This document shows, in pieces, positions 27,549 through 36,886 of a DNA stretch of 64,000 nucleotides. Below the pieces are notes generated by a model. It worked only from the letters and a program-made list of their open reading frames with translations. It was not told the origin of the DNA and did not search any database. A program made the position numbers and the translations under genes. How positions within the stretch are numbered: the first letter of the stretch is position 1; each line of letters begins with the position of its first letter. This stretch comes from Bacteroidetes bacterium GWF2_35_48. Its GTDB lineage: Bacteria; Bacteroidota; Bacteroidia; Bacteroidales; GWF2-35-48. The stretch covers positions 1 through 64,000 of the forward strand of contig MEOG01000008.1 of the NCBI GenBank assembly GCA_001769125.1, read 5' to 3'.

Positions 27549-28124
27549 TTAAAACCCTTCTTCCGCTAAAAATTCTTTCAACAAACTACGGACTTCTTCA
27601 ACAGCAACAAGGAGCTGGTCGTTAAAAATAATTTTATCAAACATAGGCGCAAATTCCAATTCCTGACTTGCTTTTGCTAATCTCTTTTTAACGACTGCAA
27701 TATCATCTGTATTCCGCATCATCAATCGTTGCTCCAGTGCTTCAAGAGAAGGAGGCATCACAAAAACAGATAATGCCCTTTCGCCATAAAGATTCTTAAT
27801 ATTCAAGCCTCCCACCACATCTACATCGAAAAGAATATTTTTTCCTTCCTTTGAGATACGATCAACTTCTGATTTTAAAGTACCGTAAAAACAACCGGAA
27901 TAAACTTCCTCCCATTCGATAAATTCATTATTATTTATTTTTTCACGAAATTCCTCAGGTGAAATAAAATAATAATCTTTTCCATGAATTTCATTAGGCC
28001 TTCTTGCACGAGTGCACACAGAAACAGAAAACTCAAGTTTGAAATTTTCGTTGAGCATACTCCTTACAATCGTTGTTTTTCCGGCACCTGAAGGAGCAGA
28101 AAAGATTATCAGTTTTCCGGGCAT
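27549..28124 (-). CDS. gmk: Guanylate kinase
   Basis: Phosphorylates GMP to GDP. P-loop SAPSGAGKTTIV at the N-terminus; GMP-binding residues in SVCTRARRPNEIHGKDYYF; FDVDVVGGLNIK. The length of 191 residues is typical. It is the middle gene of a DUF3127-gmk-nadD run with gaps of 16 and 15 bases. Confidence 0.96.
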   Translation of the reverse strand: MPGKLIIFSAPSGAGKTTIVRSMLNENFKLEFSVSVCTRARRPNEIHGKDYYFISPEEFREKINNNEFIEWEEVYSGCFYGTLKSEVDRISKEGKNILFDVDVVGGLNIKNLYGERALSVFVMPPSLEALEQRLMMRNTDDIAVVKKRLAKASQELEFAPMFDKIIFNDQLLVAVEEVRSLLKEFLAEEGF

Positions 28125-28140
28125 AATTTTTTACAAAAAA

Positions 28141-28512
28141 TCAGAAAGGCAAATCTTCGGTAGTTGGATTGAAATCTCCTTTGCTTCCATCAGCCACTTC
28201 CTGTGTCTGATTTTGAACTGACGGTGTTGAAACCGTTGTCTGACCTGATTCCTTGTCAATTTTCCATGCTCTTACATCCGTAAACCAACGTTGATTGTAC
28301 TCTCTTGATTCTAAATTGATATACACATTTATTTCGTCGCCGATTGCAAAATGCCTTAAAAATTCTGTTTTTTCGCCCCAAAGCGATATGCAAACCTTGC
28401 GTGGAAACTGTTCAATTGTTTCAAGAATAAATTCCTGTTTTTTCCAGGTTCCTTTTGCTGTAGTTCCTGATTGTTCCTCAAGTATTGCAAATAATCTTCC
28501 TTTAATTTCCAT
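28141..28512 (-). CDS. DUF3127 OB-fold-like protein
   Basis: The start is set at 28512 (MEIKGRLFAILEEQSG) because the family begins with exactly this block; an upstream in-frame ATG at 28608 would add a hydrophobic AT-rich tail. Conserved features are TAKGTWKKQEFILET, RKVCISLWG and GDEINVYINLESREYN, followed by a low-complexity tail ending DLPF. The DUF3127/SSB-like tail (acidic, ending in phenylalanine) recalls single-strand DNA-binding proteins, whose C-terminal tip recruits partners. A nucleic acid role is inferred, not known. Confidence 0.82.
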   Translation of the reverse strand: MEIKGRLFAILEEQSGTTAKGTWKKQEFILETIEQFPRKVCISLWGEKTEFLRHFAIGDEINVYINLESREYNQRWFTDVRAWKIDKESGQTTVSTPSVQNQTQEVADGSKGDFNPTTEDLPF

Positions 28513-28610
28513 AATAATGATTTTTATCAAATAATATATATATAATTTTACAAGAATAAAAAAAAAAATCCGATTTTTGAAATCTAATATTTCACAATAT
28601 ATAAACAAAT

Positions 28611-28841
28611 ATGGAAAAAAATAAAAAAGGGCCTTATAAAGTTAATGCCCAGACAGGAAAAGTTTACTGGTGGTGTTCATGTGGGTTAAGCGACAATCAG
28701 CCATTTTGCGATGGTTCTCATGAAGGTACAGACATAAAGCCTAAATCTTTTAAAGCAGAAAAAGATGGAGATATTTGGCTTTGCGGATGTAAAAAAACTA
28801 AAAATCCTCCATTTTGCGATGGGACTCATAATTCGTTATAG
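28611..28841 (+). CDS. Small two-domain CDGSH iron-sulfur protein
   Basis: A 76-residue protein with two CDGSH-type centres: WCSCGLSDNQPFCDGSH and LCGCKKTKNPPFCDGTH. Each supplies three cysteines and one histidine for a [2Fe-2S] cluster, as in mitoNEET relatives. These proteins are thought to work in electron or cluster transfer. It is transcribed divergently from the DUF3127 gene across 98 AT-rich bases. Confidence 0.93.
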   Translation: MEKNKKGPYKVNAQTGKVYWWCSCGLSDNQPFCDGSHEGTDIKPKSFKAEKDGDIWLCGCKKTKNPPFCDGTHNSL

Positions 28842-29020
28842 TGTTTTGGTTTTATTAAATTTTCAAAAATCGTGAATAATAATTTATAATTCGTAATTCC
28901 TAATTCCTAATTTTCCCCTAAAAATGTGTCTTTATACCTATTCCATTTTTCACTTTTTTTGTAAAATATGTATTAATTTTGCAAATGAATATTTTTTTTA
29001 ATTGAATGCATGGATGTTAT

Positions 29021-29052
29021 GGAGTAGGAATTGGAATTGGAATTGGAATATT
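29021..29052 (+). repeat. GGAATT microsatellite
   Basis: Units of ggaatt in a row (ggagtaggaattggaattggaattggaata). The 285-base gap 28842-29126 otherwise holds AT-rich sequence with an aattcctaattccta repeat near 28890-28915, and no gene. Confidence 0.7.
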
Positions 29053-29126
29053 TCATACTGAATTTTGTAAAAAAAATATTCTCGAAACTTGTTTTTTTTG
29101 TTTAAACAGTATATATATATTTTGCA

Positions 29127-29714
29127 ATGGATCTCAATGTTGATTATTTTAAAATTGAGCATAACGGAGTAGCTCCTGCGCAGGGAAAGATATTGATATC
29201 CGAACCTTTTTTACAGGATACCTATTTTAAAAGATCGGTAGTGCTTTTAGTCTCTTATGATAAAGGGCATTTTGTAGGCTATGTTTTGAATAAGTTTACA
29301 GAAATGAATATTCATGATGCGGCTAAAGATTTTCCTGCTTTTGATGCAAAATTATCTGTTGGCGGACCGGTAAGAGTTGATACGATTCATTTTATTCATA
29401 CACTGGGAACTCTGATTCCGGAAACCATTCAGGTAACAGAAAATTTGTGGTGGAGCGGAGATTTTTCTGCGGTAAGAGAATTAATTTCAAAAGGAAAAAT
29501 TTTGCCTAGACAGATACGTTTCTTCATAGGTTATTCGGGTTGGGAACCCATGCAACTTGAAAATGAAATATCTGAAAATTCCTGGCTGGTGGCAGATATG
29601 GAAACTGAAAATATTATGAATTGCAATGCAAATTTATGGAATGATGCACTTTCAAATTTAGGCAGCAGGTACAAATTGTGGACTAAATATCCTGAAAACC
29701 CAGGGCTTAATTAG
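29127..29714 (+). CDS. YqgE/AlgH family protein
   Basis: A 195-residue UPF0301 protein. Conserved blocks: GKILISEPFLQDTYFKRSVVLL, GYVLNK, GGPV, and the C-terminal region RFFIGYSGWEPMQLENEI. The family is widespread but its biochemical role is unsettled; AlgH was first noted for an effect on alginate genes in Pseudomonas. It is followed at once by a strong intrinsic terminator, so it is probably monocistronic. Confidence 0.92.
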   Translation: MDLNVDYFKIEHNGVAPAQGKILISEPFLQDTYFKRSVVLLVSYDKGHFVGYVLNKFTEMNIHDAAKDFPAFDAKLSVGGPVRVDTIHFIHTLGTLIPETIQVTENLWWSGDFSAVRELISKGKILPRQIRFFIGYSGWEPMQLENEISENSWLVADMETENIMNCNANLWNDALSNLGSRYKLWTKYPENPGLN

Positions 29715-29730
29715 TGTATTTGTAATAAAA

Positions 29731-29760
29731 AAAAGCTGCACAATGTGCAGCTTTTTTTTT
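29731..29760 (+). terminator. Intrinsic terminator of the YqgE gene
   Basis: AGCTGCAC-AAT-GTGCAGCT stem followed by about nine T residues, with an A-tract upstream that could let it work in both directions. Confidence 0.9.
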
Positions 29761-29765
29761 ATTTA

Positions 29766-29906
29766 GTGCTTGTCCATAAAGTCAATGTTTGAGGCAGAAT
29801 GTTCGAGTTCAAGGCTTGCGAAATAATAAAAATTTGGAGTTTACTGATGTAAATGACTTATTTTTATTATGAGCATAACGCAGAAATCGGACATTATGGA
29901 CAAACA
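29766..29906 (-). mobile_element. Family C palindromic element, copy 2
   Basis: Ends GTGCTTGTCCATAAAGTC and GACATTATGGACAAACA; exact 7-base flanks TTATTTA at 29759-29765 and 29907-29913. The right flank contains the stop codon of the minus-strand lipoprotein gene. Core GGAGTTTAC-TGAT-GTAAATGAC between paired arms ATAATAAAAAT/ATTTTTATTAT. Orientation is opposite to copy 1. Confidence 0.8.
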
Positions 29907-30353
29907 TTATTTAACAAGAGTCATTTTAATTTGTGAGCCACCCTGATCCATTGAAACTACTAATTTAGCATCAGTAAGTTCATCAACATTCAGTTTGTCT
30001 TCTTTTTCTCCCTGTTTAGTAGTGAGAATTTTTCCATCTTCACTGATAGCCCATGTGCCAGCTTCTGTTTTACCCTGGAATGTTGATTCAAAAGTTTTGT
30101 CTTCTTTAAAGTTCATTGTAGAACCTTTCATAGCTTCAACACCTTGTTTCATTCCTTCCATCATAGCTTCTTTCTGAGCTTCTTTCATACTGTCTGGAAA
30201 AGCAGCCAAAGCCTGGTTTACTGCTTCTTCAAGATTTGACATTTCAACATTGTCAATTTTCCAGGATCCAACAATTTTTTTATCAGGACCTGAACTACAT
30301 GATACGATAACCGCAATACTTAATGCAACAATAAAATACGCTAATTTTTTCAT
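29907..30353 (-). CDS. Lipocalin-like lipoprotein
   Basis: A 148-residue lipoprotein: signal peptide with lipobox ending IVSC. The mature part contains KKIVGSWKIDNVEM, a helical stretch rich in glutamate, alanine and methionine, and repeated strands FKEDKTFESTF, AGTWAISEDGKIL and KLVVSMDQGG. This is the layout of lipocalin-like 'GxW' domains common in Bacteroidota. No specific function can be given. Its stop codon lies inside the target duplication of a family C element. Confidence 0.72.
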   Translation of the reverse strand: MKKLAYFIVALSIAVIVSCSSGPDKKIVGSWKIDNVEMSNLEEAVNQALAAFPDSMKEAQKEAMMEGMKQGVEAMKGSTMNFKEDKTFESTFQGKTEAGTWAISEDGKILTTKQGEKEDKLNVDELTDAKLVVSMDQGGSQIKMTLVK

Positions 30354-30385
30354 AACCGATTAAATTTTAATTAAACATAAAAGAA

Positions 30386-30416
30386 CAAAAGTAAACTTTT
30401 TATATTAACATCCAAA
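30386..30416 (-). promoter_or_regulatory. Predicted promoter of the lipocalin-like lipoprotein
   Basis: Minus strand: TTTG (30413-30416), exactly 19 bases, TACTTTTG (30386-30393). A perfect match to the Bacteroidota pattern. Predicted start near 30379, 26 bases before the ATG. Confidence 0.75.
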
Positions 30417-30439
30417 AAATGAATGAATTTTTCAGAGCA

Positions 30440-32905
30440 TTATTTCCCATAATAAACGAAGGGAGCCCAGTTGAAAGGCATTTTCCAGTAATAACCAAAA
30501 TCGCCATTTATGAATTTTCTTTTCACTTCGTTTATTGCCTGTGAATACGATTTTTTTTCTTTTTCCACAAGTCGGTACATTTCAACCATAAATTCAGCAG
30601 TAGATTTATCTGCAACTTCCCAAAGCGATACAGATATTCCGTTTGCACCGGCTATTATAAATGATTGCGACAATCCCACAACACCTTCTCCCGGATATAT
30701 TTTTCCAAGTCCTGTTTCGCATGCAGATAAATCAACAAAGTCTGCCTGAAGGTTTAATTCTGCAATTTCAGCAGTTCTGAGATACCCGTCCTGATTATTT
30801 TTTAAATTTTCAGATTCAATTTGAGATAGCACCAATGCTGACATTTCAGGCAGTTCCGGAATGGTCATCCCATGGCAGGAAAAGTGAAGTACTTTGTAGT
30901 TTGCCAGTTTTTTTTCCTTAGCCATTTTTCTGAAATTTGTTTCGCTTACCTGCGCACCAACAATAGTATCTGTTTTCGGAAGCAGTTGACAGATTGCCCG
31001 CACCTCAACAAGGCTTCCTTTCAAATTCGCCCAGTTTTCATAACCCAAAGATTTATATTCTGCTGTTAGTGGCTTGCCTTCTGCGATTGCTTTATCAACT
31101 TTTTTCTGAATATAATTTAATTGTTTGGGATTTATTTTTCCTACGCCTGCTCCGCGAAGTTTTAATTTCTCTGCAGAACTCATATCTTCTTTATAAGTTT
31201 TTTCTCTGTACACTGCTCCTCCAAAAGCGAGTATTGGCTTTCGTGTGTCAGGATATTTGCGGGTTTTAAGCATTTCGGAAACACTTAATGATTGCGTGTA
31301 AGTAACATCAAATTTTTCAACGAGATATTTTCCTTCTTTATTGATAAGCGTTTCAAAAGGCAAATAACCGAGAATGCCACCGGGAGCAACAATTAAATCT
31401 GTTTTTTCTTTCAGCATTTCCTGAACGGGATCACATAAAAAGTTATAAAATAATTTAGAAAGTTCTTCCTGTTTGCTTGCATTTTCAGGTCGGGGTTTCA
31501 TCAGCATGTCTCTGTAGTTGTGTATGATAATTTCAAATATTTTATCTTCAAATTTTTTATCTCTTTCTTCCATTGAAGCAAGTGAAAAAAGCTGAAATTT
31601 TTCAAGATCATCAAAAGGAATTTTTGACATAATAAATGATTTAACACCTGTATTTGAAATAGCATTGTTAACAAAATTACTTTTGTGAAGCAGTACTGCA
31701 TGCGTTTTTTCTTTTGTTATGGCAAAAAGTGTTATTTCAGGCTGGTCGAGTGTTGTGTAGATGATTATTGCAGATTTCGTATTCAGATTTTTCTGCACAG
31801 TTTCAAGGCTTACCTGTGTAAATGATTTATCAGAACCGGAAATTCTTTCTGCAAGTACTTTGGAACTGCTAAGCTCTATAATGTGAAATGCATTGGCATA
31901 ATCATTTTTATAAATGTAACTTAATATAAGATTTTGATACGTGTTGATTTGCTTTGCAAGATAATCTCTTCTTATATCTGATGGCGCAGTCAACCTGAGT
32001 TTTTCTTTCAGATCAATTGATTTATTAAAATAGTTTATAGCATCGTTGTATTTTTTATCAAGCATGTACACCAAACCGATATTGTTTAAACGATCTGAAA
32101 TTCCGGGTTGGTTTTGCATCGCTGAGTCTAATTTCAAAGCATCAAAATAGGCATCTAATGCTTTGGGATAATTTTTCCAGCTTTGATATAAAGACGCAAG
32201 ATTGTTTATACAAGAGCCAATCCCTTTCATGTTTTCTGCTTTGTTGTAAATTTCAAAAGCATTGCTGTAGTATTCTAAAGCGTCTTTATATTTTTTCATA
32301 TCCTGATAAACGCCTGCAATATTATTGAAACGAATAGCCATTTTTTCTGGATTTTGAAGTTCTCCGTCGAGCTTTAGTGCTTTACGATAGAATTCGAGTG
32401 CTTTGTCATTCATCCCTTTATTATAATATGCGCTTCCGATATTATTAAAGTCTGTTGACATTCCGGCTTTGTCATTATTTTTCTGATCAATTTCTAGTGC
32501 CTGCTGGTAAAATTCCAACGCTTTGTCAAAATTTCCCCATGCTTTGTAAACCATTCCAACATTATTCAGACTGGTTGCAATAGCCATTTCATTATTTAAT
32601 TTACGGTTTACTTTTAAGCCTCTCTGAAAATTGTCAATTGCTTTATCAAATTGTCCAACCTGATAATAACAGCCACCTGCTCCTGACAATGCACGTGTTG
32701 CAAGTTTCAGATTTTGCTCTGCTGAATCTGCGGTAAGCGTTGCTGCTTTTTCGTACATTTCTGCCGCTTCAGAATACGTCCCTGCTTTCTCAAGAGAATC
32801 TGCAAGGATGTAATTGTTTTGCTGTTCTTCGTAAGATTGAGCAGTTGAGACATTGCTGATTAAAATAAAAGCAACGCATGACAGTAATAAAAGTTTATTT
32901 TTCAT
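30440..32905 (-). CDS. Exported TPR-CHAT protein (caspase-like peptidase)
   Basis: An 821-residue protein with a signal peptide (cleavage near VSTAQ). About nine tetratricopeptide repeats follow (residues about 35-330; e.g. ATSLNNVGMVYKAWGNFDKAL), then a linker and a C-terminal CHAT domain. The catalytic pair of this caspase-like family is present: H678 (HFSCHG) and C729 (DLSACETG), so it should be active. TPRs usually bind the partner or substrate. It has no T9SS sorting domain, so periplasmic location is likely. Intracellular TPR-CHAT proteins are known in bacterial cell-death defence; the exported form has no established role. The neighbouring lipoprotein is on the same strand with an 86-base gap. 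Confidence 0.88.
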   Translation of the reverse strand: MKNKLLLLSCVAFILISNVSTAQSYEEQQNNYILADSLEKAGTYSEAAEMYEKAATLTADSAEQNLKLATRALSGAGGCYYQVGQFDKAIDNFQRGLKVNRKLNNEMAIATSLNNVGMVYKAWGNFDKALEFYQQALEIDQKNNDKAGMSTDFNNIGSAYYNKGMNDKALEFYRKALKLDGELQNPEKMAIRFNNIAGVYQDMKKYKDALEYYSNAFEIYNKAENMKGIGSCINNLASLYQSWKNYPKALDAYFDALKLDSAMQNQPGISDRLNNIGLVYMLDKKYNDAINYFNKSIDLKEKLRLTAPSDIRRDYLAKQINTYQNLILSYIYKNDYANAFHIIELSSSKVLAERISGSDKSFTQVSLETVQKNLNTKSAIIIYTTLDQPEITLFAITKEKTHAVLLHKSNFVNNAISNTGVKSFIMSKIPFDDLEKFQLFSLASMEERDKKFEDKIFEIIIHNYRDMLMKPRPENASKQEELSKLFYNFLCDPVQEMLKEKTDLIVAPGGILGYLPFETLINKEGKYLVEKFDVTYTQSLSVSEMLKTRKYPDTRKPILAFGGAVYREKTYKEDMSSAEKLKLRGAGVGKINPKQLNYIQKKVDKAIAEGKPLTAEYKSLGYENWANLKGSLVEVRAICQLLPKTDTIVGAQVSETNFRKMAKEKKLANYKVLHFSCHGMTIPELPEMSALVLSQIESENLKNNQDGYLRTAEIAELNLQADFVDLSACETGLGKIYPGEGVVGLSQSFIIAGANGISVSLWEVADKSTAEFMVEMYRLVEKEKKSYSQAINEVKRKFINGDFGYYWKMPFNWAPFVYYGK

Positions 32906-32964
32906 AATAATTCATTTTAAGACATATAAAATATCTTCATTTGTGTCTAAATGCAATAAAAAAA

Positions 32965-33702
32965 TTAAGAGAAATTAAAGAGTAAATGATGTATTACAAA
33001 TTCAGAGTTAAATCTATTATGATAACTATCGAAAGTGAAATTATTTTGCTCAATGGAATCATCTATAACTCTTATTATATCCCCATTTGGTGAAGTATTG
33101 AATTTTTCATTTAATTTGTTGATAATCTCATTTTTTGTATATGTAACATTACCCTCTAATACAAATCCTATCATGCCTCCAAAATTCATATTTTGAGCAT
33201 ATTTTCCATTGAAGTAACGGTAAACACCGCCATCATAAATATTTTCATTATTAATATCCTTTTCGTAGGTATTATAGTAAACATATTTATTGACAAAATT
33301 CTGACTACCATTCAAATTTTTACATTCAAAATGGAATTCAACTGGAAAGCCTTCGTCATTTCTCCAATCACTATGAAAAACAGAAATATCATACAAGCCT
33401 TTTTTTTCTTCATCGTTATTAACTCCACCTGCAATTAAAAAACCTTGTAATCCGAATTTTCTATTATATTTCAATGAATTTCTTAAAAAAAGAGCGATTT
33501 CATCTTCAACTTTTATTTGAGGATTAATCTTTTTAATATTAATTATTTTTAAAATATCAAGAATGTTGTAACTTTTATAGAAATTTAATAAATGGAAAAA
33601 CACTTGCTTTTTCCACATGTCATTACTAATTTTTCTTTTTTCAACACTTGAGTCAGGTAAAGACATTAAATTACCCGTTTTAACATAATCCCTTCTGCTC
33701 AT
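32965..33702 (-). CDS. Candidate PD-(D/E)XK nuclease partner of the adjacent methylase
   Basis: A 245-residue protein of no named family that I recognise. A nuclease-like core can be read: D105 in GLYDISVF, followed by E126-C-K128 in VEFHFECKNL, the spacing and strand pattern of a PD-(D/E)XK active site. A later conserved-looking block NFGGMIGFVLEG follows. The gene overlaps the 3' end of the Eco57I-type methylase by 23 bases, so it is translated with it. Taken together it is a candidate restriction endonuclease or a nicking subunit. Both genes are more AT-rich than their neighbours, suggesting acquisition. Confidence 0.6.
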   Translation of the reverse strand: MSRRDYVKTGNLMSLPDSSVEKRKISNDMWKKQVFFHLLNFYKSYNILDILKIINIKKINPQIKVEDEIALFLRNSLKYNRKFGLQGFLIAGGVNNDEEKKGLYDISVFHSDWRNDEGFPVEFHFECKNLNGSQNFVNKYVYYNTYEKDINNENIYDGGVYRYFNGKYAQNMNFGGMIGFVLEGNVTYTKNEIINKLNEKFNTSPNGDIIRVIDDSIEQNNFTFDSYHNRFNSEFVIHHLLFNFS

Positions 33703-36697
33703 ACGGTGTAAATTTTAAAATACTTTGCCCATCTTCAAATGCTTTTGTTTCTGTCCAGTTTTGATTTATGTCTTTTTTTAGAATATAAACACAGTCTTTA
33801 CCAAAGATAAATTCTTGCTCCAAAAAGAATTTACCATTTTGATATTCTTTGAAAATCTGTTCTAAAGAATATAGACCAACTTCCTTTGCAGTAGGATTGT
33901 TATTTGTACCGAAAAAAACTTTTATAACTCTTAAATTGAAATCATTAAAATTTTCAATAGTGATTTTTTGTGAAAAATAAAATTCTAATGTATCTATCAA
34001 AGCTTCTGTATAATTCTTTATTATAGAATTGGTTGTTGGCTTTTTGGCATCAGATAATAAATAATCTTTTATTCGTTGTCTCTCTAAATAAGATAACTCG
34101 TATAAATCAAAGATGAGTTCATTTAATTCATTTTCCTTTACTGAATATTTATATTTTCCTTCGGTTAAGTCTTTGCTTATATTTGATATTTGAGTTACTA
34201 AATCTTGGTCTAATTCTTTTGGAATGGGTATATTCTTAAGTATGCTACCATCAATTCTTGGCAGATTATCTCCTATACGTTTTTTATCTCTAATATTAAT
34301 TATATAATTAATTAAATTAGAGTTCAATAAAGCCGTAATAAAACAATTTAACTTGTTTTCTAAAACCTTTACTCCAAAAATATTTACAGAAAACACAATA
34401 TCAAAAGGAGTATAAACCGCTTTTATACTATTGCCAACTCTTGTTATTAATATTTTTTTTTCTCTAAATATTTCAACGTCTCTTGGTCTTTGAAAATTTT
34501 CTTTTGTAATTGAATTTAAATTAATGAAGCCATCATAATTATTTATTTTAAAATGATTTATATTTGAATATTCATAAAGGTAAGGGGTTTTGAAATTATT
34601 GTTGAGATTTTCGGACAAATAATTTTTTAGTTCAAATTCTTTCTGAAATTTTTTCTTATCTTTTTTCTTTAGTTTTTTAAAATGAGAAATACTTAAATTG
34701 AAAAAATCAGCAATTTCTTTATTGCTTTTTCTTGTTAATCCTTGAATACTTTCATCTTTTATATCTAATAGATTCTCTAATTTGGAATATTCATTAAATT
34801 TATTTATAAATAATCTATCAAAATCATTCCCCATCAAAAAATCTCTTAATCGTATCTTTTTTCCAATAAGTTTTTCCTGCTCAATTTGAATAACTTTATC
34901 TTCTTGAATTATCAATAAATCAAATGGCTTTTCTGAGAATAATCCTTTATCTACAGGATAATAATCAATAACATTATTTTGATAGTTATTAGTAAAAATA
35001 ATTGCAACAACACTTTCTTTTGCTTTTTCAAACAAGATGTCTTTTACTCTTGAAAGTTCATATATTTTTTCTATACCATAATTTGAATAAAAGAATTTTT
35101 GAAACTTTTCGGCTTCATTATAGAAATTTGAGCTATTAGATATAAATCCAAATCTTGTTTCAAGCTTACTCCATTCTTTTATTTTTAATAAGAAGCATTG
35201 CGAAATTTGATATCCTTCAATAATATTTTTTGCAATATATTTATTTCCTAAATGCTCAAGTTCATATTTATTTGTGAAGTCTTTTGCTTCTTCACTTACT
35301 TCTTTTCTTACAAATGGAGGATTTCCCACTATGTAATCAAACGTCCTGCCTTCAAATGCTAAATTATTAATGTCTAAAGTATTCTGACAGATGATATTTT
35401 TAAAGAAATTATGTTCTTTAAAAATCTTGATTTCCTGATTTCGCTCTAATTCATTTGCAATAAACAATTTGATTTCTTCTGCCGGTATATTTTTGAAAAT
35501 CTGTAATGAAAGCGAAAATAGAGTAAATCGTTGTGCTGTTAATGTCTTTTCAACCCCAAATATATTCTCAGATAAAAGTTTGATTCTATCCTCAATTTTT
35601 TTTATATTATTTTCAGGTTCTTTTTTTTGTTTCTGTGCTATTTCTAAAAGCCGTTGAAACCCAACAATAAGGAACATTCCAGAGCCACATGAAGGATCTA
35701 AAATTGAGCCTATTTTATCTTCGTTTATTACATCATCAACAATTAATTGGGCTAATTTTTTTGGTGTATAGTAAATTCCGTTTTTCTTTTGCTCTTCGGA
35801 TAAGAAAACTTCATAAATATTACTAATAAGTTCAATGGGTAATACATTAAATTGAAAATCGAATAATCTTAATTGTCCAGTTTTTTCTGTATTAAATGAG
35901 GCTGCGATTAAATTGCGAACATCACTAGTTAAATATTTATCATCTATTGTTGGTTGGTCGAATAAGGCATTATTAAAAATTTCGTGAATTTTTTTAAACA
36001 GCTTATTAATGTCTGTATTTGTTTTTTTCACTAATAACTTCCCGTAATTTAGGGTAGAATCTACAAAATAATGATTATAGAAGTGGGAGTTAATAATATG
36101 ATTATCTTCTAAAAACTTAATATATAATGTTCTATCTATTAGTGCTTGAACAATCTTATTTAATTCATTTTCTTCAGAAATTAAATGATATAAGGTATCG
36201 TAAAGATTGTCCTTTAACGTTTTTAAGGTTGATACTAACTCTTTGTCAATCCCTCTATATTTTGCTTTGTCAATAAAGGATTGATAGTTTAACCAAAAAG
36301 CTCCACTATCAAACTGCCATTTATTGATTTTTTCAAACTTTTTAAAATCTTTTTGAATAGTAGTAAAAATGTCTATTGTACTCTCCTTATTACTTATTTT
36401 AGGAGAGTATTTAGCATAATACATTTCCAATTTAGTAGCTTCATTAGGATAATAGAAAATTAAATCAGCATCATTTTTATTCCAAATATATTTTCTGATT
36501 TTTTCAAATTCATTAGTTCTTAATTCCGTTGTAATTAGATAAAATGAAGTATTTGTATTGCTGGGACTTTTGTAGAAGAAAACAGATTTTTTAAGTCTAT
36601 CAATTAGCGCAGATTTTTCTTCCATATCAATAGGCTTAAGCATCAAATCTACTTTGAAGTTAAAACCTAAATCAGAAAAAAAATTCACATAATTCAT
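33680..36697 (-). CDS. Eco57I-type (class IIG-like) adenine methyltransferase/restriction protein
   Basis: A 1005-residue protein. Residues about 1-290 are helical and unassigned. The methyltransferase core follows: NGIYYTPKKLAQLIVDDV, AdoMet motif I DPSCGSG at 334-340, and motif IV NPPF at 459-462, which marks N6-adenine methylation. The C-terminal half resembles the target-recognition part of class IIG enzymes (RDVEIFREKKILITRVG; DNLPRIDGSILKNIPIP). It should methylate, and possibly cut, a specific DNA site. A clear nuclease motif was not found within it, which fits a separate nuclease in the overlapping downstream gene. Strongly AT-rich. Confidence 0.85.
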   Translation of the reverse strand: MNYVNFFSDLGFNFKVDLMLKPIDMEEKSALIDRLKKSVFFYKSPSNTNTSFYLITTELRTNEFEKIRKYIWNKNDADLIFYYPNEATKLEMYYAKYSPKISNKESTIDIFTTIQKDFKKFEKINKWQFDSGAFWLNYQSFIDKAKYRGIDKELVSTLKTLKDNLYDTLYHLISEENELNKIVQALIDRTLYIKFLEDNHIINSHFYNHYFVDSTLNYGKLLVKKTNTDINKLFKKIHEIFNNALFDQPTIDDKYLTSDVRNLIAASFNTEKTGQLRLFDFQFNVLPIELISNIYEVFLSEEQKKNGIYYTPKKLAQLIVDDVINEDKIGSILDPSCGSGMFLIVGFQRLLEIAQKQKKEPENNIKKIEDRIKLLSENIFGVEKTLTAQRFTLFSLSLQIFKNIPAEEIKLFIANELERNQEIKIFKEHNFFKNIICQNTLDINNLAFEGRTFDYIVGNPPFVRKEVSEEAKDFTNKYELEHLGNKYIAKNIIEGYQISQCFLLKIKEWSKLETRFGFISNSSNFYNEAEKFQKFFYSNYGIEKIYELSRVKDILFEKAKESVVAIIFTNNYQNNVIDYYPVDKGLFSEKPFDLLIIQEDKVIQIEQEKLIGKKIRLRDFLMGNDFDRLFINKFNEYSKLENLLDIKDESIQGLTRKSNKEIADFFNLSISHFKKLKKKDKKKFQKEFELKNYLSENLNNNFKTPYLYEYSNINHFKINNYDGFINLNSITKENFQRPRDVEIFREKKILITRVGNSIKAVYTPFDIVFSVNIFGVKVLENKLNCFITALLNSNLINYIINIRDKKRIGDNLPRIDGSILKNIPIPKELDQDLVTQISNISKDLTEGKYKYSVKENELNELIFDLYELSYLERQRIKDYLLSDAKKPTTNSIIKNYTEALIDTLEFYFSQKITIENFNDFNLRVIKVFFGTNNNPTAKEVGLYSLEQIFKEYQNGKFFLEQEFIFGKDCVYILKKDINQNWTETKAFEDGQSILKFTPYEQKGLC

Positions 36698-36886
36698 TTG
36701 CTATTAACTATTTTATAGTATACTTTTTAAGGCAATAAAAATAACAAATTAGAAACAAATTTGCCTATTAAAGCTAATATTTTTATTTCATAAATTTTAA
36801 ACAAATTAATTTTAGCATGAGTACCTTCATATATTGTGAAAACTACCAATTACAGTCTATTTATCACATAAAAAAAAACTATACCA

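What the first reader, a model, noticed from the sequence alone, without database searches (positions are those of the whole stretch)
32965..36697. Overlapping two-gene restriction unit with a possible separate PD-(D/E)XK subunit
An Eco57I-type methylase (motifs DPSCGSG and NPPF) overlaps by 23 bases a 245-residue protein with a readable D105...E126-C-K128 nuclease core and a GMIGFVLEG block. Class IIG enzymes normally carry their own nuclease, but none was evident in the methylase. The pair is more AT-rich than its surroundings, as expected of an acquired defence unit. The small partner may be an undescribed nuclease family.
Basis: partly seen in the sequence, partly recalled or inferred. Interest (0 to 1): 0.5.

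Follow-up and report, generated by a model that had tools for sequence, protein, structure and literature searches.

The report
Methylase with a separate nuclease partner
Two overlapping bacterial genes, found together in many bacteria, look like a DNA-methylating enzyme that reads the sequence and an undescribed small DNA-cutting partner that depends on it, a defence design easily mistaken for a single self-sufficient enzyme.

Summary
The 245-aa protein S belongs to a family without a significant Pfam, NCBIfam, PADLOC, PHROGs or PDB match. Its E66, D105, E126 and K128, the PD-(D/E)XK signature, are unchanged in 63 of 63 sequences. S sits directly downstream of a related Eco57I-type methylase M in 63 of 65 distinct loci from Bacteroidota, alphaproteobacterial plasmids and viral contigs; both misses are at contig ends. 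M shows no conserved D or K in its first 290 residues. M's C-terminal domain (CTD) goes with S: of 44 strong matches in 393 genomes, 41 lie beside S, one beside an S remnant, two at contig ends. Target-recognition domains (TRDs) are exchanged between close Ms while S can stay 72-83% alike, so specificity seems to lie in M and S to act as its nuclease subunit. A same-genus genome lacks the unit between the same two neighbours. PADLOC files M as Type IIG; S is annotated 'hypothetical protein'. The fold was not confirmed; cleavage, docking and site are untested. Verdict: real, widespread, new variant of a known kind.

The parts
32965..33702 (-). S: small nuclease-like partner, 245 aa (includes stop codon)
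   Evidence: ORF; S directly downstream of M in 63 of 65 distinct loci; no significant Pfam/NCBIfam/PADLOC/PHROGs/PDB match
33157..33507 (-). S residues 66-182: putative PD-(D/E)XK core (E66, D105, E126, K128, G176-M-I-G179 strand)
   Evidence: E66, D105, E126, K128, Y140 invariant in 63 of 63; model with helix 65-79 and strands 88-91, 105-114, 120-128, 138-144, 174-182, low confidence, no helix predicted between 128 and 174
33680..36697 (-). M: Eco57I-type gamma-class adenine methyltransferase, 1005 aa
   Evidence: Pfam Eco57I 7.7e-14, MmeI_Mtase 3.6e-10, TaqI_C 1.4e-9; PADLOC REase_MTase_IIG PDLC03623 1.5e-34 over residues 63-570
36128..36697 (-). M residues 1-190: N-terminal domain without a conserved nuclease motif
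   Evidence: residues conserved at 70% or more in 48 Ms: L10, W72, G132, W135, L154, L165, L186
34898..35827 (-). M residues 291-600: methyltransferase core
   Evidence: DPSCGSG 334-340, NPPF 459-462; conserved columns
34223..34840 (-). M residues about 620-825: target-recognition domain, replaced between close relatives
   Evidence: identity windows versus L016 are 72-95% before it, 30-42% within it and 72-92% after it; TaqI_C 711-825
33683..34147 (-). M residues 851-1005: C-terminal domain that goes with S; inferred docking domain
   Evidence: A8 profile: 44 strong places in 393 genomes, 41 beside S, 1 beside an S remnant, 2 at contig ends; 17 of the 41 were rows of the profile
33680..33702 (-). 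23-base overlap of the two genes, inferred translational coupling
   Evidence: ORF coordinates; overlap or tiny gap is general
32906..36886 (.). stretch absent from the same-genus genome G814, between a TPR-CHAT gene and an ABC-transporter gene
   Evidence: G814:C259 matches 28067-30529 and 30609-33677, 79 bases apart

Best explanation
The two genes are one mobile restriction-modification unit with labour split between two proteins. M reads a DNA sequence through its exchangeable TRD and methylates adenine in it (inferred from the gamma-class motifs). S is a PD-(D/E)XK-type nuclease without specificity of its own. It is made by coupled translation, docks on M, most likely on M's C-terminal domain, and cuts DNA at or near M's site when the site is unmethylated. 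Shown by sequence: the conserved signature, the near-invariable pairing, the S-linked CTD, TRD exchange without exchange of S in one clade, the unit-less site in a same-genus genome. Inferred: nuclease activity, docking on the CTD, methylation-gated cutting, defence role.
For: E66/D105/E126/K128 in 63 of 63 S. M directly upstream, same strand, in 63 of 65 distinct loci, both misses at contig ends. The CTD profile has 44 strong places in 393 genomes: 41 beside S (24 of them not rows of the profile), one beside an S remnant, two at contig ends. In the window's own genome there are 17 Eco57I match places, two of them in one protein; the CTD profile rings at two, both beside S (nine of 56 candidates scored). 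TRD exchange: L097/L101 have MT core 90%, TRD 44-45%, S 83%; L100 against either 80-81%, 45-47%, 72%. Distances of M core and S over 48 pairs of genes agree (r 0.86; highest of 999 permutations 0.11). No conserved D or K in M's first 290 residues, 48 Ms. Unit absent between the same neighbours in G814.
Against: The fold of S is not confirmed: mean pLDDT 50.3, and the helix expected between the ExK strand and the next core strand is not predicted; no Foldseek match better than E 0.26; best VIA-align row an unrelated chain (Z 4.3, 84 residues, rmsd 4.1). Family-level support is weak (Pfam PDDEXK_9 best E 0.0057 in 4 of 55, below cut-off; hhalign P 0.0057, probability 6.5%). In the window/L016 pair the first 104 residues of S fall to 36% together with the TRD. 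In L097/L101 and L100/L101 S also has a more variable stretch near its C-terminus (lowest window 57% and 43%). Over 31 close pairs S is slightly less alike where the TRD differs (median 46 vs 54%). The alphaproteobacterial set showed no clean TRD exchange to repeat the test. The CTD profile was built from S-linked Ms only, so it leans towards such Ms. One S fragment (108 aa, L164) has no M match in its 6-kb stretch.
Confidence: 0.7

Rival explanations
1. S is an ordinary Type II restriction endonuclease that reads the same site as M on its own, and the two act as independent enzymes that merely travel together.
For: S has the size of a Type IIP enzyme (recalled); in the window/L016 pair residues 1-104 of S diverge (36%) together with the TRD while L016/L017 share both; S identity is slightly lower in close pairs with different TRDs (median 46 vs 54%); S has a variable stretch near the C-terminus in the L097/L100/L101 clade.
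Against: L097, L100 and L101 have TRDs only 44-47% alike but S 72-83% alike; L016/L018 TRD 27% with S 60%; S forms one alignable family beside very different TRDs; S goes with one particular C-terminal domain of M.
Confidence: 0.17
2. M is a true Type IIG enzyme with a cryptic nuclease in its N-terminal domain, and S is an accessory or second-strand nicking subunit.
For: PADLOC models PDLC03603 and PDLC03623, named REase_MTase_IIG, match some Ms over nearly full length (L035 profile 4-1009 of 1016, L044 profile 30-1009 of 1022); a heterodimeric enzyme with a small cutting subunit is known (BstNBI, passage of PMC4081073).
Against: No conserved D or K in M residues 1-290 of 48 sequences; hhalign of residues 1-200 with PDDEXK_9 P 0.39 and with S P 0.5. 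The M model was too poor to judge the fold (pLDDT 43).
Confidence: 0.08
3. S is not a restriction nuclease but a repair or housekeeping nuclease tied to the methylase, as Vsr is to Dcm.
For: A small nuclease gene overlapping a methylase gene is known from dcm-vsr (recalled).
Against: Vsr serves 5-methylcytosine deamination (recalled), whereas M has the NPPF motif of adenine methylases; one S per M and an S-linked CTD do not suggest a general repair factor.
Confidence: 0.05

Closest known systems
Type IIG / IIC restriction enzymes (Eco57I, MmeI, BpuSI; PADLOC REase_MTase_IIG)
   Same: gamma-class adenine methylase core with a C-terminal TRD of TaqI type, about 1000 aa; PADLOC IIG models are the best match of the window's M and of nine other Ms scanned
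   Different: Type IIG carries its nuclease at the N-terminus of the same chain (PMC3874165 and PMC4081073, passages); here no such motif is conserved and the nuclease signature is in a separate protein
Type II systems with a gamma-class methylase and a separate endonuclease (M.TaqI, M.AhdI kind)
   Same: separate modification and cutting proteins
   Different: there the endonuclease reads the site itself (recalled); here S can stay alike while the TRD changes, and M has additional N- and C-terminal domains
Type I and Type III restriction
   Same: specificity and methylation on one side, a nuclease that works through that complex on the other, TRD exchange
   Different: their nuclease subunits are large motor proteins (passages; recalled in part); S is 245 aa with no helicase family match
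BREX PglX
   Same: Eco57I-type methylase formerly listed as Type IIG in REBASE (PMC12707154, passage); weak PglX match of M
   Different: no BREX gene seen by eye among the ORFs listed at 27-43 kb of the window, and a dedicated small nuclease-like partner instead
PD-(D/E)XK superfamily, Pfam PDDEXK_9
   Same: register GxxD...(Y/F)xxExK; hhalign P 0.0057, best Pfam E 0.0057 in 4 of 55
   Different: below the cut-off; no significant match of S to any model

Membership tests
PD-(D/E)XK nuclease superfamily (S) | D and (D/E)xK catalytic residues, with a conserved helix-A glutamate | tested here: met
   E66, D105, E126, K128 in 63 of 63
PD-(D/E)XK nuclease superfamily (S) | alpha-beta-beta-beta-alpha-beta core fold | tested here: inconclusive
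   model fits in its first half only, mean pLDDT 50.3, no helix predicted between 128 and 174; structural comparisons not informative
PD-(D/E)XK nuclease superfamily (S) | profile kinship with known families | tested here: inconclusive
   PDDEXK_9 E 0.0057 in 4 of 55, below cut-off; hhalign P 0.0057, probability 6.5%
PD-(D/E)XK nuclease superfamily (S) | metal-dependent DNA cleavage | not testable with these tools
   needs the protein
Type IIG restriction enzyme (M) | gamma-class methylase and TRD in one chain | tested here: met
Type IIG restriction enzyme (M) | nuclease domain in the same chain | tested here: not met
   no conserved D or K in residues 1-290 of 48 Ms; fold not judged
Type II with independent endonuclease | separate R and M proteins | tested here: met
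   63 of 65 distinct loci
Type II with independent endonuclease | endonuclease recognises the site by itself | tested here: inconclusive
   TRD exchange with S kept speaks against it; the window/L016 pair is ambiguous
Type I restriction | separate HsdS and a motor HsdR | tested here: not met
   TRD is within M; S is 245 aa without helicase match
Type III restriction | Res subunit with helicase | tested here: not met
   S has no helicase match
Vsr repair nuclease | paired with a 5-methylcytosine methylase | tested here: not met
   M has NPPF and matches adenine-methylase families

The most novel reading that the evidence does not exclude
A restriction-modification architecture not found described in ten paper searches: a Type IIG-like methylase that has no nuclease of its own and recruits, through a dedicated C-terminal domain, a small motor-free PD-(D/E)XK subunit with no sequence specificity, so that one TRD exchange changes methylation and cutting together. 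A share of the enzymes now filed as Type IIG would then be the specificity-methylation half of two-protein systems.
Probability: 0.55. Interest if true: 0.68.

Novelty: new variant of a known kind. Interest (0 to 1): 0.55.

Why it matters
If true, a common unit (S profile in 36 of 393 genomes of the order, one of them a doubtful hit) is read by tools as a lone Type IIG enzyme with a 'hypothetical protein' behind it (9 of 9 annotated plasmid copies). It would add a nuclease family, correct labels in defence-finding tools, and give a natural system in which specificity can be exchanged in one protein while the cutting protein stays the same, a property wanted for making enzymes with new specificities. 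It also makes testable how single-chain Type IIG enzymes and multi-subunit systems turn into each other.

Tried and rejected
Methylase-less version: an ATG-only ORF list made L015 and L033 look as if S sat beside only the C-terminal part of M. A look at the frame showed full-length open Ms without an early ATG; rejected as an artefact.

Fold confirmation: S model pLDDT 50, M model pLDDT 43, Foldseek and VIA-align without a usable match. One restriction endonuclease, 1bua (EcoRV, name recalled), was listed at Z 3.3, rmsd 5.1 over 117 residues, tied with unrelated proteins; not used as evidence.

N-terminal domain of M as a decayed nuclease: hhalign with S P 0.5 and with PDDEXK_9 P 0.39; no support. 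The PDDEXK_9 rows were read on wrong strands, so its comparisons with PDDEXK_9 are void and one search replaces them; the five domains were located by their own D...ExK pattern.

Isolated low-score family names for single S members were not followed (for example NCBIfam E 0.00019 in 1 of 16, PADLOC 0.0019 in 1 of 16, Pfam 0.0055 in 1 of 55, each with an unrelated name). Weak search hits L041, L042, L043 were dropped: two look like pyridoxal-phosphate enzymes and one like a response regulator, read by eye, and none scored as S. G855 (E 7.8e-4, 474-aa frame) and the five weakest CTD places (E 0.003-0.008) were not followed and are treated as chance. Left out of the 63-sequence residue count: L076 and L077 (duplicates of L016 and L017), L040 and L087 (S cut by contig ends), and the fragments or cut copies L160, L162, L164, L165. 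L117 holds an M cut off by its contig end, so S cannot be looked for there and it is in no count.

Searches that found no S: viral contigs; plasmids; phages.

Controller gene: of ten ORFs upstream of M scanned, two have an HTH family (L036, L116) and one of the five short plasmid ORFs has a sub-cut-off ribbon-helix-helix match; not a general part.

The library lacks most subscription papers and REBASE itself, so this is not proof of absence. The nearest passage is a two-gene Type IIG locus of Prevotella intermedia 17F, but there both proteins are assigned as Type IIG enzymes (PMC5608340). Papers seen as passages only: PMC11837570, PMC4081073, PMC3874165, PMC5608340, PMC10609329, PMC12707154; the rest as search listings.
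Full report
What is there. On the minus strand, M (33680-36697, 1005 aa) and S (32965-33702, 245 aa) overlap by 23 bases. M matches Eco57I, MmeI_Mtase and TaqI_C in Pfam and Type IIG models in PADLOC. S has no significant match in Pfam, PADLOC, NCBIfam or PDB sequences; a profile of 16 relatives found nothing in the PDB. Member-by-member scans gave only sub-threshold names, PDDEXK_9 at E 0.0057 in 4 of 55 being the only nuclease name that recurs. Five members had no PHROGs match.

Relatives. A single-sequence search found 4 of 395 genomes of the phylum including the window's own. Two MAGs came from the genome collection and one viral contig from IMG/VR; three other viral scans with S found none, and scans with M added L116 and the cut-off L117. 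A 6-row profile gave 14 of 395 genomes of the class, of which three weak hits were false. A 16-row profile gave 36 of 393 genomes of the order, one of them doubtful, including a second copy in the window's own genome. Plasmid searches gave copies in Bradyrhizobium, Mameliella, Sagittula, Agrobacterium, Asticcacaulis, Sinorhizobium, Sphingobium, Rhizobium and Novosphingobium; three other queries found none there, nor two in phages.

Gene order. In one search I examined 60 loci: 57 hold S, 55 of them with an M on the same strand directly upstream, in some cut by a contig end. Two are duplicates of other loci (L076, L077), leaving 55 distinct with 53 paired; the two misses (L040, L087) are S cut by a contig end. 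With the window, the viral locus L116 and eight plasmid loci the count is 63 of 65 distinct. In L174 the M frame is split just before the end of the C-terminal domain, and L017's M has an in-frame stop. Frames overlap or nearly touch; in eight of nine annotated plasmid loci S starts between 20 bases before and 1 base after the end of M (the ninth is L174). Besides these, an S fragment of 108 aa without an M match stands in L164, G891 has M and S at the ends of two contigs, and G988 has a fragment at a contig end. In 9 of 9 annotated plasmid copies S is 'hypothetical protein'; L172 has no annotation.

Active-site signature. Across 54 S sequences E66, D105, E126, K128 and Y140 are identical in all, and in 63 of 63 after nine more were added. 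Identity to the window's S goes down to 15% in the 55-row alignment. In the AlphaFold model E66 lies in a helix, D105 and E126-x-K128 in the following strands, as in the PD-(D/E)XK core, but the model is weak (mean pLDDT 50.3, four sequences), puts a further strand at 138-144 and no helix before the strand 174-182, and finds no structural relative. Profile comparison with five PDDEXK_9 domains aligns D105 and E126-x-K128 on their counterparts with P 0.0057 and probability 6.5%, against P 0.39 and 0.27 for the N- and C-terminal domains of M. I take the nuclease assignment as likely, from the signature, and the fold as unproven.

No nuclease in M. Among 48 full-length Ms the residues conserved at 70% or more in positions 1-190 are L10, W72, G132, W135, L154, L165 and L186; in 191-290 the charged ones are E197 and E289. 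There is no conserved D and no conserved K, hence no D...ExK. The AlphaFold model of M is too poor to use (pLDDT 43). PADLOC's best model is a Type IIG one for the window's M and for nine of nine other Ms scanned, over nearly full length in L035 and L044.

A domain that goes with S. A profile of the last ~155 residues of 27 Ms was searched in the same 393 genomes. Of 49 places, 44 have E below 1e-10; 41 of these lie beside an S. Of the other three, one (G778) is beside a 94-aa S remnant, one (G891) ends 50 bases before a contig end, and one (G745:C299) runs off a contig. The five remaining places have E 0.003-0.008. Two cautions: 17 of the 41 are rows of the profile, and all rows came from S-linked Ms, so the profile leans towards them; and the search scored at most nine candidates per genome. 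In the window's own genome 17 places match Eco57I, two of them in one protein, while the CTD profile rings at two, both beside S. This is the main reason to propose the domain as the docking site.

Specificity sits in M. Between the window and L016, M is 72-95% identical in sliding windows up to about residue 600, 30-42% over the recognition domain, then 72-92% again. L097/L101, L100/L101 and L032/L079 show the same kind of drop. In L097/L101 S is 83% identical and in L100 against either 72%; windows along S range from 57 to 97% and from 43 to 97%, lowest near the C-terminus. Of 31 pairs with methylase core at 60% or more, 24 have TRDs under 50%; six pairs have S at least 20 points more alike than the TRD. 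Against this, median S identity is 46% in those 24 and 54% in the other seven at equal core identity. In the window/L016 pair residues 1-104 of S are only 36% identical, while L016/L017, which share the TRD (73%), also share that part of S (60-83% in windows). In the alphaproteobacterial set no clean exchange was found. Pairs are not independent. Parts of S may touch the TRD or the DNA; I keep this open as a rival.

One unit, inherited and moved together. M-core and S distances over 48 units correlate at 0.86, with at most 0.11 in 999 permutations. The unit has 25.4% GC against 35.8% for the rest of the window. In the same-genus genome G814 the TPR-CHAT gene (74% identical) and the ABC-transporter gene (81%) that flank the unit lie 79 bases apart on one contig, and the S and CTD profiles find nothing in that 90%-complete draft. 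A blastn of the junction region aligned the left flank only, so it adds nothing for the right side. Gain in one line or loss in the other is not decided by this; the low GC favours gain.

How it most likely works. M binds its site, methylates host DNA, and presents S to unmethylated sites; S supplies the cut. This is like Type I and III restriction in logic, but with no motor, and like Type IIG in the methylase, but with the nuclease outside the chain. [quoted passage not shown] A precedent for relabelling is PglX, formerly listed as Type IIG in REBASE (PMC12707154). Ten paper searches found no description of this pair (listed in Tried and rejected).

Verdict. Observation confirmed, first reading supported; new variant of a known kind, widespread and unnamed in the libraries searched. 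Activity, docking, cut position and motif await experiments.

Noticed in passing
M, 33680-36697, and relatives L015, L083, L085, L032: The M family is poor in methionine: median 0.74% over 48 Ms, 0.1% in L015 and L083, 0.6% in the window's M, against 2.6-2.9% in its two neighbours; the longest frames of seven other Eco57I loci of the same genome (one, L006, the second unit's M) have 0.9-1.9%. Unexplained.
   Followed up: partly
L115 (G000:C128): A second, distant M+S unit in the same genome.
   Followed up: partly
L017 4967-8708; L174 940-4869; L160 3484-4186; L164 3886-4209: Decaying copies: M with an in-frame stop and an altered SAM motif, M split before the end of its C-terminal domain, a remnant M-S pair, and a lone S fragment.
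   Followed up: partly
L018 and L116: Contigs of the viral collection IMG/VR carry the complete M+S unit, L116 with an HTH gene upstream.
   Followed up: no
L169, L170, L171, L173, L175, just upstream of M: An ORF of 61-70 aa precedes M in five alphaproteobacterial plasmids, without a Pfam family above cut-off; it could be a controller.
   Followed up: no
window 30440-32905: A TPR-CHAT type protein (named by eye) borders the unit; it belongs to the backbone shared with G814, not to the unit.
   Followed up: partly
L044 8833-16486: Downstream of the Bradyrhizobium unit lie a second Eco57I methylase gene and a helicase gene on the same plasmid, perhaps a defence cluster.
   Followed up: no
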